This document shows positions 55,049 to 61,073 of a DNA stretch of 64,000 nucleotides, in pieces (the first letter of the stretch is position 1; each line of letters opens with the position of its first letter). A program made the translations under genes and the position numbers. The stretch is from contig NZ_PDOB01000009.1 in assembly GCF_002760665.1 (NCBI RefSeq), positions 1 to 64,000 on the forward strand, in the 5' to 3' direction. Under the pieces are notes generated by a model. That model was given only the letters and a program-made list of their open reading frames with translations. It was not told the DNA's origin and did not search any database. Origin of the DNA: Massilia psychrophila. GTDB taxonomy: Bacteria; Pseudomonadota; Gammaproteobacteria; Burkholderiales; Burkholderiaceae_D.

Positions 55049-55240
55049 GTACGGCACTCATACCCCGAGCGCCGCGCGCCTTGTGCGGTCGCACGCTTGC
55101 CGGCCAGTCCAGAAAAATGTCAAAATAATATTGAATTTTGTTCTGTTCCGTTCGCCTGCACAGGATGCTTATGGACAAAAAATGTTCTTGGAAAATTATT
55201 CAGATATTTTTTATTGATTTCGGAATTGACTTTGCAAGTC

Positions 55241-55373
55241 ATTGATTTCGTTCGAATTATTTTTTGCCTTCTGAATGAGCATTTTGTTGAAACCCGCATT
55301 CCCAAAGGCTTGCGTGGTGTCAAGGGGGGCTTATCCACAAAGTTATGCACAACCACTGTGGATATCTTAAAAA
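55241..55373 (+). repeat. DnaA-box element, copy A
   Basis: AT-rich 133-bp sequence matching 58802-58935. It ends with three DnaA-box-like sites: TTATCCACA (55331-55339), TTATGCACA (55343-55351) and the inverse TGTGGATAT (55357-55365). The last 43 bp share 33 bases with copy B. It lies 160 bp before the UvrD-like helicase gene. Confidence 0.75.
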
Positions 55374-55532
55374 CTGCTTTATAAACTGACACTTAGACCG
55401 TTTACTGCTCGCGGACCCGGCGCTGTGCGACCGGGCTCGGCACAGTGCATGAGAATGTTTGTGCAAAATACCGGTTTTCTTCTTGCGCAAAATAACTGGA
55501 TAAATGTACAGTAGTATCCACCCCAAGCCTGA

Positions 55533-57698
55533 ATGCCCGCCATGCCTGAAGCTGTTGCTCCGATTGTTGTTACTCCCACCCTTGTTGCTCCCACCCTTGC
55601 TGCTCCCGTCCTCGCCGCCTCCACTACTGCCGACGATCCCTACGGCAGCCTCAACCCTGAGCAGCGCGCCGCCGTCGAGCACGATATTGGCGCCGGCGAG
55701 GGCGCCGCGCGTCCCTTGCTGGTCATCGCCGGCGCCGGTTCCGGCAAGACCAACACGCTGGCGCACCGCGTAGCCCGGCTGATCCAGGGCGGCACCGATC
55801 CCCAGCGCATCCTGCTGCTGACGTTTTCGCGCCGCGCCGCCACCGAAATGACGCACCGCGCCGGCAGCGTGCTGGCGCGCGTGATGGGCATGCGCGCCAG
55901 CAGTGCGCCGGCCAGCCTGCCGTGGGCCGGAACCTTCCACAGCATCGGTGCGCGCCTGCTGCGCGAGTACGCCGGGCGCATCGGGCTGGATCCTTCGTTC
56001 ACCATCCACGACCGCGGCGATTCCGAGGACCTGATGGGCATGGTGCGGCACGACATCGGCCAAAGCCAGATCCAGGGCGCCAGGCGCTCCCCCCTGAAGG
56101 GCACCTGCCTGTCGATCTACTCGCGGGCGGTGAACAGCCGCGATCCGCTGGCGCTGGTGCTGCAGAGCACTTTCCCGTGGTGTAAGGAATGGGAAGCCGA
56201 GCTGAAAACGCTGTTCGGCGCCTACGTCGACGCCAAGCAGGAGCAGAACGTGCTCGACTACGACGACTTGCTGCTGTTCTGGTCGGAAATGGCGGCCGAC
56301 CCCGAGCTGGGGCCGGAGCTGGGCGCTTTGTTCGACCATGTGCTGGTGGACGAGTACCAGGACACCAACCGCTTGCAGGCGGCGATCATCACCGGCATGA
56401 AGCCGGACGGGCGCGGCGTGATGGTGGTGGGCGACGACGCCCAGTCGATCTACGCCTTTCGCGGCGCCACGGTGCGCAACATCCTCGATTTTCCGCAGCA
56501 ATTTTCGCAGCCGGCGGTGCTGATCACGCTCGAGCGCAACTACCGCTCGACGCAGCCGATCCTCGACGCTTCCAACGCCGTCATCGCCGGCGCGCGGGAG
56601 CGCTATGCCAAGACGCTGTGGACCGACAAGGCATCGACCGTGCAGCCGCAATTGGTCTTGATCCCGGACGAGGCCGAGCAGGCGCGTTGGGTCTGCAACC
56701 GCATCCTCGAGCACCGCGAGGCGGGCATCGCGCTGACGGCCCAGGCGGTGCTGTTTCGCGCCGCCAGCCACAGCGCGGCGCTGGAACTCGAACTGATGCG
56801 GCGCAACATCCCGTTCGTCAAGTTCGGCGGCCTGAAGTTTTTGGAGGCGTCACACATCAAGGACGTGCTGGCGGTGCTGCGCTTTGCGCAGAACCCGAGC
56901 GGGCGCATGGCCGGCTTTCGCGTCGCCCAACTGATTCCCGGCATCGGGCAGGCCACCGCCAGCAAGTTGCTCGACGAGGTCGGCGCGGCGGCCGAGCCGA
57001 CCGTCGCGGTGGAACAGTTCGCCGCGCCCGCCAGGAGTGCCGGCGACTGGCGCGAGTTCGTCGCCCTTTACCGCGCGCTGCGCACGCCGGGCCTGCGCTG
57101 GCCGGCCGACATCGAGCTGGTCAAGACCTGGTATTTGCCGCACCTGGAACGGATGCACGACGACGCGCAGGTGAGGGTGGCCGATGTCGAACAGCTGGCG
57201 CAGCTGGCGGGCGGCTACGGCACGCGCGAAACTTTTCTCGCCGAAATAACGCTCGACCCGCCGGAGGCAAGCAGCGACCGCGCCGGCCCGCCCCTGCTCG
57301 ACGAGGATTACGTGATTCTCTCGACCATCCATTCGTCCAAGGGGCAGGAGTGGAAATCGGTCCACGTGCTCAACGTCGTCGACGGCTGCATCCCGTCGGA
57401 CATGAGCACCGGTAACGCCGACGACATCGAGGAGGAGCGCCGCCTGCTGTACGTCGCCATGACACGCGCCAAACAACATCTGCACCTGGTGGTGCCGAAC
57501 CGTTTCTTCATCAAGCAGCAGGCGCAGATGGGCGACCGTCACGTGTATGCGGCGCGCAGCCGCTTCATCACGCCGGCCATGCTCAAGCATTTCGAGGAAT
57601 GCGTGTGGACCAGCGCCGAAACGCGGCACACCAAAAAACCGATGCCCGACAGCGTGCGTATGATGGTAAGGGACCGCGCGCGCAATGCGTGGAAGTGA
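55533..57698 (+). CDS. UvrD/Rep-like ATP-dependent DNA helicase
   Basis: 721 aa superfamily 1A helicase. Motifs in order: SLNPEQRAAV (Q motif), LLVIAGAGSGKTNTL (Walker A), LTFSRRAATEMTHR, AGTFHSIGARLLREYAGRIG, HVLVDEYQDTNRLQ (Walker B), VVGDDAQSIYAFRGATVRNI, LERNYRSTQPIL, ILSTIHSSKGQEWKSVHVLN and EERRLLYVAMTRAKQHLHLV. All catalytic motifs are intact. It unwinds 3'-to-5', probably in repair or fork restart. The first 34 residues are a low-complexity run of VAPTL-like pentapeptides not seen in UvrD; a start nearer SLNPEQ is possible. No operon partner. Copies of the DnaA-box element lie on either side of this gene and the next. Confidence 0.93.
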   Translation: MPAMPEAVAPIVVTPTLVAPTLAAPVLAASTTADDPYGSLNPEQRAAVEHDIGAGEGAARPLLVIAGAGSGKTNTLAHRVARLIQGGTDPQRILLLTFSRRAATEMTHRAGSVLARVMGMRASSAPASLPWAGTFHSIGARLLREYAGRIGLDPSFTIHDRGDSEDLMGMVRHDIGQSQIQGARRSPLKGTCLSIYSRAVNSRDPLALVLQSTFPWCKEWEAELKTLFGAYVDAKQEQNVLDYDDLLLFWSEMAADPELGPELGALFDHVLVDEYQDTNRLQAAIITGMKPDGRGVMVVGDDAQSIYAFRGATVRNILDFPQQFSQPAVLITLERNYRSTQPILDASNAVIAGARERYAKTLWTDKASTVQPQLVLIPDEAEQARWVCNRILEHREAGIALTAQAVLFRAASHSAALELELMRRNIPFVKFGGLKFLEASHIKDVLAVLRFAQNPSGRMAGFRVAQLIPGIGQATASKLLDEVGAAAEPTVAVEQFAAPARSAGDWREFVALYRALRTPGLRWPADIELVKTWYLPHLERMHDDAQVRVADVEQLAQLAGGYGTRETFLAEITLDPPEASSDRAGPPLLDEDYVILSTIHSSKGQEWKSVHVLNVVDGCIPSDMSTGNADDIEEERRLLYVAMTRAKQHLHLVVPNRFFIKQQAQMGDRHVYAARSRFITPAMLKHFEECVWTSAETRHTKKPMPDSVRMMVRDRARNAWK

Positions 57699-57732
57699 AC
57701 GTGAATGGAATAACGAAACGCCTGCGTGCGGT

Positions 57733-58641
57733 TCAGCCGGCCGGGCCGATCGGGGTGGCGACGGCGACGTAGTGCCGGGCCGCGCCGCCGGCATCCTCGA
57801 AGGCCAGCACCGAGCAGCGCAGGTCGCAGGCGCCGCTCGCCAGCATCACGTGGAGTTCGCCGTCCCAGCTTGCGTCAGCCGCCAGCGCCGTCATGATCTC
57901 GTTTGTCAGATCCGGCGGAAATGCTTCGCGGTGAACGGCGTGCAGGTCGCGCCCGCGCAATTGCTCGGGCTGCATGCCGACCAGCCGGCACAAGGTCGAA
58001 TTGGGCTCGACAATGCGGCCCTCCCGATCGAGCGTGAGGACCAGTACCAGTGCGTGGCGGTCGACGGCGGCAATCACCTGTTGTGCCCGCTCGAGTTCGG
58101 CATACGCCGCCGCGCGCGCGCGCGCGGCGGCCGCCAATGTCGCGTACGCGCGCAGCGACGCGATGACGGTGGTATAGAGCTTGCGGGTGGTCAGGTCGGC
58201 TTTGCTCCAGAAATCGCTGACGTCGTAGTCGACGATGATGCTGTGCTCGAGTTCCTGGCCCGGCTGGCCGGTGCGCAGTACGACGCGTACCAGATCGTTG
58301 TGCAGCTCGTTGCGGACCTGGCGCGCCAGGCGCAGGCCGGCGTCGGAAGTTTCCATCATCACATCGAGCAGGATGAGGGCAATATCGGGGATGTCGCGCA
58401 ACTTGTCGAGCGCTTCCTTGGCCGAGTAGGCGTGCAAGAAGCTCAGGCGGCGGCCCTGGAAATTAGCATTGCTGAGCGCAAACTTGGTGACGACATGGAC
58501 GTCCACGTCATCGTCGACAATCAAAATGCGCCACGGCGGCGTCTCGTCCGCGGCAACGCTGCCCGTGGCCGACGCTTCGTCATCGTCATCGTCAGCGAAC
58601 AGGTGTGGATCGTCTGCAGTGGCATGGTCGCTTGCTTGCAT
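57733..58641 (-). CDS. Response regulator with REC and PAS domains
   Basis: 302 aa. An acidic leader (DDPHLFADDDDDEAS) precedes a receiver domain (ILIVDDDVDVHVVTKFALSN, phospho-acceptor Asp in ALILLDVMMETSDAGLRLAR, Lys in FWSKADLTTRKLY). After a helical linker a PAS domain follows (about 195-300: LDREGRIVEPNSTLCRLVGM). No enzymatic or DNA-binding output is present. The receiver resembles those that precede HD-GYP or GGDEF domains (DUF3369-like proteins), so this may be a truncated or adaptor form. Confidence 0.85.
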   Translation of the reverse strand: MQASDHATADDPHLFADDDDDEASATGSVAADETPPWRILIVDDDVDVHVVTKFALSNANFQGRRLSFLHAYSAKEALDKLRDIPDIALILLDVMMETSDAGLRLARQVRNELHNDLVRVVLRTGQPGQELEHSIIVDYDVSDFWSKADLTTRKLYTTVIASLRAYATLAAAARARAAAYAELERAQQVIAAVDRHALVLVLTLDREGRIVEPNSTLCRLVGMQPEQLRGRDLHAVHREAFPPDLTNEIMTALAADASWDGELHVMLASGACDLRCSVLAFEDAGGAARHYVAVATPIGPAG

Positions 58642-58801
58642 TGGCTCACACTAGGACAGCACGGGCGAATTGTCAAAGCAATTCATGACGCATAAATTGT
58701 CGTAAAAAACCGAACTTTTTCAGACTTATCCCCTGTTGGGAACTTTTGTAGGAGAATGCCTCATAAGGACATGTAGGAAGAATCCTCATCTGCGCCAAGT
58801 G

Positions 58802-58935
58802 ATTGATTCATTTGAGTTTACTTTTTGCATTTAAAACGGGCAATTTAATGAAAACCGCATGAATACAGGGCTGGCAGGGTGCTCAGCTTGAGTTGTCCAC
58901 AATGTTATCCACAGTTCGTGTGGATATCCTGAAAA
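58802..58935 (+). repeat. DnaA-box element, copy B
   Basis: Partner of 55241-55373. Three sites: TTGTCCACA (58893-58901), TTATCCACA (58905-58913) and inverse TGTGGATAT (58919-58927), with the same 12- and 14-bp offsets as copy A. It ends next to a decayed transposase reading frame. Confidence 0.75.
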
Positions 58936-58936
58936 G

Positions 58937-59220
58937 ATGAATGAAATCCGTGGGTTAGCACAGATGTTCGGTAATCAAAGTGTTTCTGGAAAAATAGTTG
59001 CCGTGATACAAGGGCTTTCACGCGCTTTTGCCGAGTTCACCGAGGCAAAGCTGGCCGAGCGCGTCCACGAAGCGCTGATCAAGAACTATCTGGGCGACAC
59101 GCTGATTGGCCACATCAGTCGAGATGGCACAGCGATCGCGGCGAGAGAAAAGCCGGCGAACACTGGCACAGATGCTCAGTGATTTGCCCAAAGCGTGTGA
59201 ATTCGCCGTGCAAGTGCGCG
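58937..59220 (+). pseudogene. Transposase fragment (DDE type, IS4/IS5-like)
   Basis: About 75 codons read VIQGLSRAFAEFTEAKLAER, NYLGDTLIGHISRDGTAIAA and REKPA, the region around the first catalytic Asp of a DDE transposase. A stop follows, and MLSDLPKACEF, a later part of the same family, appears in another frame at about 59173-59205. The rest is gone. Family assignment beyond DDE is unsure. Confidence 0.6.
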
Positions 59221-59553: not shown

Positions 59554-59560
59554 TCAGGAA
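59542..59560. repeat. 19-bp palindrome over the tssK stop codon
   Basis: TTCCTGAACCGTTCAGGAA has 9-base perfect arms with one central base. It covers the tssK stop and the first codons of the vgrG fragment, so it marks the junction point; without a T-run it is a poor terminator. Confidence 0.6.
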
Positions 59561-60897
59561 GCAACCGCGATCAGTTCGAGTTTCAGCGCGCGCATCCCGG
59601 AAGGGACGTAGATTGAAATCGATTGGGCCTGCAGCATCCGTTCGTACATCGGCCCCTTGCTGTCGAGCGTGAAGTAGCAGGTGTCGGGGCGCACCGGCAC
59701 CGCCGCCGGTACTTGCGGCGCGTGCTGCAGGCGCACGCCGGGCATCGCCGACAGGACGAATTTTTCGACGTCGTCGGGCGCGCCGATCTTGAAGCGCAGC
59801 GGTACCACGTCGACCAGTTCGAGCGCTGCCATGTCGGCCGAAACGGCCAGGTAGAACGCGGTGCGCTCGTCGATCTTGCCGGAGTCGAGCATGCCGTGGT
59901 GGTACGACGGCTTCGTTTCGGTCAGGGCGATGGCAAAATATTTACTGGAAATGACGGTGTCGAGCAGCTCGCGGATGATCAGGTGCAGCCGTTCGAACGA
60001 CGGCCCCGGATCGGCGTGCTGGTAGGACGGCAGGTCCGACAGCACATGATTTTTGGAGAACGTCATCAGGCCGCCTGCCAGGCCGAGCAACTGCTGGAAC
60101 AGCCGCTCCGGATGCAGCGTCGGATGCTGGAGGTAGTGCGACAGCGAAGCGAACGCCGAACTGGCCGTGTGCAGCAGCCAGAAGGTGGACATGTCGCCCG
60201 AGCGGTATTCGATGACGTTCTTGCTAGGCTCGCGATGGTGGCCGTGCAGTGCGCTCACTTTCGCCTGCAGCGCGTCGAGCAGGCGGCGCAGTTGTACGAA
60301 CAGCGGCGACGAACTGCGGATCGACAGGCTGGGCGGGATGAACGTCGGGTCGGTTTCGAAGCCGCCGGTCGACAGCCGCCGCAGCCTTACCAGCGGGAAG
60401 CTGACGAACGAATCGCGCGGCTCGCTCTCGGCCACCAGCCGCAGCGACTTCTTGAGGTAGGTCAGCTGGGCCAGCGCGGCCTGGGTAAACAGGTCCGGCG
60501 TTTCGCACGTGCTCTGGGCAAAGCGGGCGCCGTTGTTGACCTGGCCGGTGGGCGTGAAATTGCCGCCGAAATGCTTCAGCGCGGGCAAGGCGGCGTGAAA
60601 GGTGACGCTCTGGCCTTGCCCCAGCTCGCTCAGGTCGACCGCCCCGGGCAGCTCGTCGTTGCCGGGCGCGTTGACGATTTCGCCGTCGGGGAAGATCAGC
60701 GACAGCTCGAGCACGCGCAAGGAGTTGCTGACCAGCGCCTCGCGGTCGACCTTCAGGTGGCTGACCCCCCATGCATACGGATGCAGGGCCTTCACGCTTT
60801 CGTGCAGCCGGTGCTCGTGATATTGATCCTGCTGCTGGAAATGCTGCGGCCTCAGGAACAGCCCTTCACCCCATAGAACCTTGCTGGCAGTACTCAT
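59554..60897 (-). CDS. tssK: Type VI secretion baseplate subunit TssK
   Basis: 447 aa, full length for TssK (ImpJ/VasE). Starts MSTASKVLWGEGLFLRPQHF, the hallmark N-terminus, and continues QQDQYHEHRLHESVKALHPY and AWGVSHL; the C-terminal neck/receptor part ends PSGMRALKLELIAVAS. It links the T6SS baseplate to the TssJLM membrane complex. It is divergent from tssF with 176 bp between. The following tssL and tssM genes expected in many T6SS clusters are replaced by a vgrG scrap. Confidence 0.96.
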   Translation of the reverse strand: MSTASKVLWGEGLFLRPQHFQQQDQYHEHRLHESVKALHPYAWGVSHLKVDREALVSNSLRVLELSLIFPDGEIVNAPGNDELPGAVDLSELGQGQSVTFHAALPALKHFGGNFTPTGQVNNGARFAQSTCETPDLFTQAALAQLTYLKKSLRLVAESEPRDSFVSFPLVRLRRLSTGGFETDPTFIPPSLSIRSSSPLFVQLRRLLDALQAKVSALHGHHREPSKNVIEYRSGDMSTFWLLHTASSAFASLSHYLQHPTLHPERLFQQLLGLAGGLMTFSKNHVLSDLPSYQHADPGPSFERLHLIIRELLDTVISSKYFAIALTETKPSYHHGMLDSGKIDERTAFYLAVSADMAALELVDVVPLRFKIGAPDDVEKFVLSAMPGVRLQHAPQVPAAVPVRPDTCYFTLDSKGPMYERMLQAQSISIYVPSGMRALKLELIAVAS

Positions 60898-61073
60898 TTT
60901 TGATCCTTTGTGTAGACCGCGGAACAGGCGCAGGCGACGGTTTATCGTGTGCCAAAGAAACCATTTCACCGGGAAATTGCTTCTTCGCCTTTGTTGTATA
61001 TCAAGTCAACCGAGTTCGGTAGGCAATAGATTCAGTATTTGGCGCGTGCGCGCGAAACGGACCGGAGTCAATT

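What the first reader, a model, noticed from the sequence alone, without database searches (positions are those of the whole stretch)
55241..58935. Two copies of a 134-bp element with three DnaA-box-like sites bracket a helicase gene
Copies at 55241-55373 and 58802-58935 are alike over about 134 bp. Each ends in three nonamers with identical offsets: box, +12 box, +14 inverted box (TTATCCACA/TTATGCACA/TGTGGATAT and TTGTCCACA/TTATCCACA/TGTGGATAT). The last 43 bp share 33 bases. Exact spacing in otherwise diverged copies argues that protein binding, perhaps DnaA, conserves it. They could be DnaA-titrating or DnaA-reactivating sites, or ends of a mobile element that uses DnaA boxes; copy B abuts a transposase remnant. 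A UvrD-like helicase and a response regulator lie between them.
Basis: partly seen in the sequence, partly recalled or inferred. Interest (0 to 1): 0.68.

Follow-up and report, generated by a model that had tools for sequence, protein, structure and literature searches.

The report
DARS-like DnaA-recharging sites in Massilia
Two short DNA elements beside a helicase gene in a Massilia-type bacterium have the same layout as the E. coli sites that recharge the replication-starting protein DnaA, and closely similar elements turn up, often beside the gene priA, in a large share of related bacteria, although the papers I could read describe such sites only in E. coli and its nearer relatives.

Summary
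Copies A (55235-55373) and B (58796-58935) are 69% identical over 141 bp, with boxes at identical offsets (box, +12 box, +14 inverted box). Shuffled windows give 0 such sites. The genome holds one more, in the hemE-priA gap, plus a partial fourth beside it.

The offsets match the core of the E. [quoted passage not shown] When both gaps were left free (0-25 bp), 72 of 73 class-wide hits and 12 of 13 order-wide hits fell on this one spacing out of 676. The core occurs in 132/145 family and 121/204 class genomes (reversed-pattern control: 0).

It sits at -95 to -99 in 117/171 distinct cores. E. coli DARS2 has a footprinted IHF site at -87 on the same strand.

The hemE-DARS-priA order is conserved across the family, and priA adjacency also occurs outside the order. 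The A/helicase/response-regulator/B order is conserved in Massilia. DnaA, Hda, IHF-alpha and a Fis homologue are encoded.

Best reading: DARS elements that release ADP from DnaA with IHF's help. The geometry is shown; the activity is inferred. Mobile-element ends are rejected.

The parts
55235..55247 (-). Copy A: IHF consensus AATCAATGACTTG, 96 bp before box III
   Evidence: one of only 3 perfect consensus sites in the 64-kb window; 2 of the 3 belong to A and B
55279..55297 (+). Copy A: conserved block GCATTTTGTTGAAACCCGC between the IHF site and the core (binder unknown)
55331..55339 (+). Copy A: DnaA box III, TTATCCACA
55343..55351 (+). Copy A: DnaA box II, TTATGCACA (+12)
55357..55365 (-). 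Copy A: DnaA box I, inverted (TGTGGATAT; +14)
58796..58808 (-). Copy B: IHF consensus AATCAATCACTTG, 97 bp before box III
58838..58858 (+). Copy B: conserved block GGGCAATTTAATGAAAACCGC
58893..58901 (+). Copy B: DnaA box III, TTGTCCACA
58905..58913 (+). Copy B: DnaA box II, TTATCCACA (+12)
58919..58927 (-). Copy B: DnaA box I, inverted (TGTGGATAT; +14)
55533..57698 (+). Divergent UvrD/PcrA-like helicase between the copies; copy A lies in its upstream region
   Evidence: PF00580, PF13361; below the equivalog cut-offs of PcrA, UvrD and Rep
57733..58641 (-). Receiver-PAS protein (weak receiver-domain match) between the copies; copy B lies upstream of it
   Evidence: PF08448 above cut-off, PF00072 below cut-off

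Best explanation
A and B are DnaA-reactivating sequences (DARS) of the IHF-assisted, DARS2-like type. Proposed mechanism: ADP-DnaA, produced after initiation by Hda/clamp-driven hydrolysis, binds boxes III, II and the inverted box I. The head-to-head contact forced by the inverted box I loosens ADP. IHF bends the DNA about 90 bp upstream and brings the flanking conserved block against the DnaA complex. Apo-DnaA leaves, takes up ATP and supports the next initiation. Shown here: geometry, IHF placement, conservation, locus orthology, and presence of DnaA, Hda, IHF-alpha and a Fis homologue in the genome. Inferred: DnaA and IHF binding, ADP release, effect on initiation.
For: (1) Same box order, orientations and offsets as E. 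coli DARS1 (L004:1608/1622/1634) and DARS2 (L005:636/650/662). A review states that DARS1 and DARS2 share the same spacing with box I opposite to II and III (PMC5742627). (2) With both gaps free to vary 0-25 bp, 72/73 exact hits class-wide and 12/13 order-wide have gaps 3 and 5 (binomial vs 1/676: 1e-202 and 1e-33; genomes are related, so this is an order of magnitude only). (3) IHF consensus on the minus strand at -95 to -99 in 117/171 distinct cores, none on the plus strand in the 130 bp upstream. E. coli DARS2's footprinted IBS pair lies at -87 (minus strand) and -71, so the same-strand site is about one helical turn nearer. (4) 132/145 family genomes, 121/204 class genomes, 0 reversed-control hits. 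(5) A profile of the family element finds E. coli DARS1 (E=1e-6) and DARS2 over its IHF-to-core length (E=0.005). (6) DnaA, IHF-alpha, Hda and a 39%-identical Fis homologue are in the window's genome. (7) E. coli DARS1 and DARS2 lie in the uvrB and mutH promoter regions (PMC5835720); here the elements lie by a UvrD-like gene and priA.
Against: No binding or nucleotide-exchange data exist for these sequences. Box affinities may differ from E. coli: box I is ATATCCACA and B's box III is TTGTCCACA. The Fis sites essential for E. coli DARS2 have no consensus counterpart in A or B. Hda in the window's genome is not proof that DnaA cycles through an ADP form there.
Confidence: 0.8

Rival explanations
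1. Transcription control: DnaA with IHF at these sites regulates the helicase gene (A), the receiver-PAS gene (B) and priA, tying repair/restart helicase expression to DnaA activity. This is not exclusive with the DARS reading.
For: A lies about 170 bp before the helicase start codon, and the hemE-priA copies precede priA in at least ten named genera. E. coli DARS1 and DARS2 lie in the uvrB and mutH promoter regions.
Against: Several other cores lie between convergent ORFs with no promoter apparent, e.g. L050, L055, L077, L094, L141 (simple ORF calls). The tandem hemE-priA copies sit about 300-460 bp apart. B points away from its gene. The fixed IHF-core module is independent of gene context.
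Confidence: 0.1
2. Pure DnaA titration sites: high-affinity boxes that sequester DnaA without changing its nucleotide.
For: Consensus boxes in clusters; the only perfect TTATNCACA boxes in the window belong to A and B.
Against: Titration does not need one spacing out of 676, an inverted third box, or an IHF site at a fixed distance.
Confidence: 0.06
3. Ends of a mobile element that uses DnaA boxes.
For: An IS1182 transposase remnant abuts B; two similar repeats bracket two genes.
Against: Direct, not inverted, repeats. The same A/helicase/receiver-PAS/B order holds in seven same-genus or Massilia records with about 3.4-3.6 kb spacing where measurable. The remnant was not found in the other 292 sequences. 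The element is orthologous at hemE-priA across the family. No match on plasmids or phages.
Confidence: 0.01
4. Replication-origin modules: the hemE-priA pair is part of oriC and A/B are derived from it.
For: In the complete same-genus genome G004 the hemE-priA cluster (94 kb from dnaA) is the only DnaA-box cluster in the 360 kb scanned; only a single box lies just upstream of dnaA.
Against: A and B lie 1.79 Mb from dnaA in G004. In G028 a separate origin-like site with TAGTAGTAGTAG repeats and box clusters lies at 5.1375-5.1387 Mb, 43 kb from hemE-priA, near the GC-skew change. None of the class loci examined lies beside dnaA.
Confidence: 0.03

Closest known systems
E. coli DARS2 (rppH-mutH region; IHF- and Fis-dependent DnaA-reactivating sequence)
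   Same: Three boxes III +12 II +14 inverted I; IHF consensus on the same strand upstream of box III; located in a promoter region of a DNA-repair gene; recovered by the profile of the present family.
   Different: IHF site at -97 instead of -87 and -71; boxes closer to consensus; no Fis consensus in A or B; two copies bracketing one locus plus a third genomic copy; different flanking genes; an extra conserved block GCATTTTRTTGAAACCCGC; a beta- rather than E. coli-type gammaproteobacterium.
E. coli DARS1 (bioD-uvrB)
   Same: Identical core geometry; located upstream of a DNA-repair gene; matched by the family profile (E=1e-6).
   Different: No perfect or one-mismatch IHF consensus near the DARS1 core; the literature describes DARS1 as working without added factors in vitro (PMC5742627).
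E. coli datA (IHF-dependent DnaA-ATP hydrolysis)
   Same: DnaA boxes plus an IHF site outside oriC.
   Different: Its essential boxes all face the same way (PMC5742627); here box I is inverted, as in DARS.
Bacillus subtilis DnaA-box clusters (titration)
   Same: DnaA boxes outside oriC.
   Different: B. subtilis lacks DARS1, DARS2 and IHF (PMC13220808).

Membership tests
DARS (DnaA-reactivating sequence) | Core of three DnaA boxes with the DARS1/DARS2 spacing and box I opposite to II and III | tested here: met
   free-gap control
DARS (DnaA-reactivating sequence) | Located outside oriC on the chromosome | tested here: met
   1.79 Mb from dnaA in G004
DARS (DnaA-reactivating sequence) | Promotes ADP release from ADP-DnaA and nucleotide exchange | not testable with these tools
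   needs biochemistry
DARS (DnaA-reactivating sequence) | Deletion delays, and extra copies advance, initiation | not testable with these tools
   needs genetics
DARS2 subtype | IHF site on the box-III side of the core at a helically defined distance | tested here: met
   -96/-97 in A/B, 117/171 cores; E. coli -87 same strand. About 10 bp further out than in E. coli
DARS2 subtype | Fis sites (FBS2-3) beyond the IHF site | tested here: inconclusive
   No consensus GnnYAnnnnnTRnnC within -120 to +60 of A or B; weak excess at -66 in 16/171 cores; Fis binds degenerate sites; a Fis homologue is encoded
DARS2 subtype | Position orthologous to E. coli DARS2 (mutH region) | tested here: not met
   helicase locus and hemE-priA instead; hence DARS2-like, not DARS2 itself
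datA | Essential DnaA boxes all in the same direction beside an IHF site | tested here: not met
   box I inverted
IS/transposon ends | Terminal inverted repeats linked to a transposase and variable insertion sites | tested here: not met
   direct repeats at orthologous sites

The most novel reading that the evidence does not exclude
DARS is an old and general part of the DnaA cycle across Gammaproteobacteria in the broad sense (including Betaproteobacteria), ancestrally seated beside priA with IHF about 97 bp away, multiplied in some lineages (tandem at priA, paired around a helicase in Massilia, arrays beside xseA with IHF at -30). The E. coli DARS1 and DARS2 would be diverged descendants rather than an enterobacterial invention.
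Probability: 0.5. Interest if true: 0.75.

Novelty: new variant of a known kind. Interest (0 to 1): 0.64.

Why it matters
The papers I could read describe DARS2 cores as specific to gammaproteobacteria related to E. coli (PMC4245941). If these elements work, DnaA recharging by DNA is much more widespread, there is a simple sequence signature to find it (12/14 core plus IHF at -97), and several non-enterobacterial models become testable. The recurrent seat beside priA, uvrB, mutH and a UvrD-like gene raises the question whether recharging DnaA is coupled to repair or restart.

Tried and rejected
Mobile-element ends: rejected by orthology, direct orientation and absence of the IS remnant elsewhere. 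Plasmid or phage origin: no match. Origin of replication: A and B far from dnaA; checked with GC skew, which is too weak in G004 to locate the origin. Terminus position: an E. coli-type dif consensus found nothing usable (one 3-mismatch hit in the own genome), so the distance to the terminus is unknown. Fis sites: no consensus site in A or B. Literature: no held paper joins DARS with Betaproteobacteria or Burkholderiales; two papers join it with Burkholderia, of which one was opened: it mentions DARS-like sites only for Vibrio cholerae. The original 2009 DARS paper is not held, so what it says of distribution rests on later papers.

Full report
CHECK OF THE OBSERVATION. A gapped alignment gives 97 identities in 141 positions, same strand. 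Each ends in box, +12 box, +14 inverted box: A 55331/55343/55357, B 58893/58905/58919. The pattern TTRTCCACA-N3-TTATNCACA-N5-TGTGGATA with up to 3 mismatches is found twice in the window and never in 100 dinucleotide shuffles. In the whole 4.73-Mb genome it is found three times, with no hit of the reversed control. The third copy lies between hemE and priA (L003:1501). About 400 bp further on, still before priA, a fourth, incomplete copy keeps the IHF site and two boxes but has lost box I.

WHAT THE GEOMETRY IS. In E. coli MG1655 the bioD-uvrB gap (DARS1) holds boxes at L004:1608(+), 1622(-), 1634(-), and the rppH-mutH region (DARS2) at L005:636(+), 650(-), 662(-). Read from the other strand this is III, +12 II, +14 inverted I: exactly the arrangement of A and B. 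A review states that DARS1 and DARS2 share the same spacing and that box I is opposite to II and III, and that head-to-head contact is the special feature of DARS (PMC5742627).

SPACING CONTROL. The strongest test leaves both gaps free (0-25 bp each, 676 combinations) and demands exact boxes. In 300 genomes of the order, 12 of 13 hits have gaps 5 and 3. In 150 genomes of the class, 72 of 73 do (counted by eye from the list). The binomial figures are 1e-33 and 1e-202; the genomes are related, so these only show that chance is out of the question.

DISTRIBUTION. Up to 3 mismatches: all 5 genomes of the genus searched and 132 of 145 of the family, 33 of 40 genera. Up to 2 mismatches: 121 of 204 in the class and 50 of 160 in the phylum sample. 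Reversed-control hits were 0 in every one of these searches. Named records with the exact core include Duganella, Rugamonas, Massilia, Collimonas, Herminiimonas, Undibacterium, Nitrosomonas, Methylomonas, an Alcanivoracaceae and a Zetaproteobacterium bin. The window's genus is inferred to be Massilia: same-genus genome G002 has a core at C47:2831-2864, which is also the position in the Massilia sp. RYN_587 contig L117, and records named Massilia share the A/B locus.

IHF SITE. The 64-kb window holds three perfect IHF consensus sites (WATCAANNNNTTR; 0.5 expected), and two of them lie 96 and 97 bp before box III of A and B, on the minus strand. Across loci it is at -96 to -99 in 54 of 70 cores. 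In the 171 distinct cores of the larger set it is at -95 to -99 in 117; only 7 further sites fall in the 130 bp upstream, and none is on the plus strand. In E. coli DARS2 the two 13-mers separated by 3 bp that are footprinted by IHF (PMC4245941) correspond to L005:729-741 and 745-757. In the same frame they start at -71 (plus) and -87 (minus). The minus-strand site is therefore one helical turn closer than in Massilia; two other loci have it at -88 and -89.

OTHER CONSERVED PARTS. Across the family the element also keeps a block near -57 to -36 (GCATTTTRTTGAAACCCGC), TGTCAAG near -13 and AAAAGCRCTTATGAA after the core. In seven Massilia-clade A loci mean conservation is 0.92 in the core, 0.92 at -60 to -36 and 0.88 at the IHF site, against 0.63 upstream and 0.59 downstream; B behaves similarly. 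A profile built from 56 family copies finds E. coli DARS1 (E=1e-6) and DARS2 over the IHF-to-core length (E=0.005). The core itself contributes much of those scores.

LOCI. Among the fetched family loci, which were found by the core and so are a selected set, most lie in the hemE-priA gap, often as a tandem pair or triple 300-460 bp apart. Cores beside priA are also seen outside the order (L051, L053, L054; also L080, L098, L105, L107, L153 from gammaproteobacterial records). The A/helicase/receiver-PAS/B order with 3.4-3.6 kb spacing is found in G000, G001, G004, L092, L099 and L149, and the separate A and B contigs of G002 agree. Some cores lie between convergent ORFs, so promoter control is not the common denominator. 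None of the class loci examined sits beside dnaA.

MACHINERY. DnaA, IHF-alpha, Hda and a 39%-identical Fis homologue are encoded in the window's genome, so ADP-DnaA production and an IHF-dependent return path are both plausible.

INTERPRETATION. The best-supported reading is an IHF-assisted DARS. Shown: sequence architecture, conservation, orthologous loci, presence of partners. Inferred: binding, ADP release, effect on initiation. Titration alone does not need this geometry; transcription control may be an added role; mobile-element ends are excluded. For the hemE-priA copies an involvement in the origin cannot be fully excluded in Massilia, where that cluster is the only one in the 360 kb around dnaA that I scanned. 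In G028 an origin-like site is separate from it. A and B are 1.79 Mb from dnaA.

NOVELTY. PMC4245941 calls the DARS2 core specific to gammaproteobacteria related to E. coli; PMC6090056 mentions DARS-like sites in Vibrio cholerae. I found no held paper on Betaproteobacteria. The library lacks most subscription papers and the original DARS paper, so prior notice cannot be excluded.

Noticed in passing
L195 (G015:C28:698500-702500), L196 (G051), L194 (G070), L197 (G028), L198 (G105): A second class of 12/14 cores beside xseA in two genera: tandem arrays of up to 7 cores (about 245 bp period in L195) with the IHF consensus at exactly -30 on the plus strand in 15 cores, instead of -97 on the minus strand. 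About 1.4-1.7 Mb from dnaA in the closed genomes. Possibly another kind of DnaA-recharging or -inactivating site.
   Followed up: partly
L271:17510-18720 (G028:C1 about 5.1375-5.1387 Mb): Origin-like site with two near-identical AT-rich copies carrying TAGTAGTAGTAG repeats next to a DnaA box, upstream of an aspartate carbamoyltransferase gene and 49 kb from dnaA.
   Followed up: partly
window 58937-59179: Remnant of an IS1182-family transposase next to copy B.
   Followed up: yes
L003:1808-1931: Degenerate fourth copy before priA: intact IHF site and two boxes, box I lost; the same loss appears in several relatives.
   Followed up: partly
L200 (G004), L199 (own genome): Only one DnaA box with up to one mismatch was found in the few kilobases around dnaA, so the origin of Massilia may not lie at dnaA.
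   Followed up: partly
L101, L144, L146: Exact cores on MAG contigs labelled Phycisphaerales, Anaerolineae and Clostridiales; perhaps mis-binned proteobacterial contigs.
   Followed up: no
window 59554-60969: A type VI secretion gene (T6SS_VasE family) lies just beyond the IS remnant downstream of copy B.
   Followed up: no
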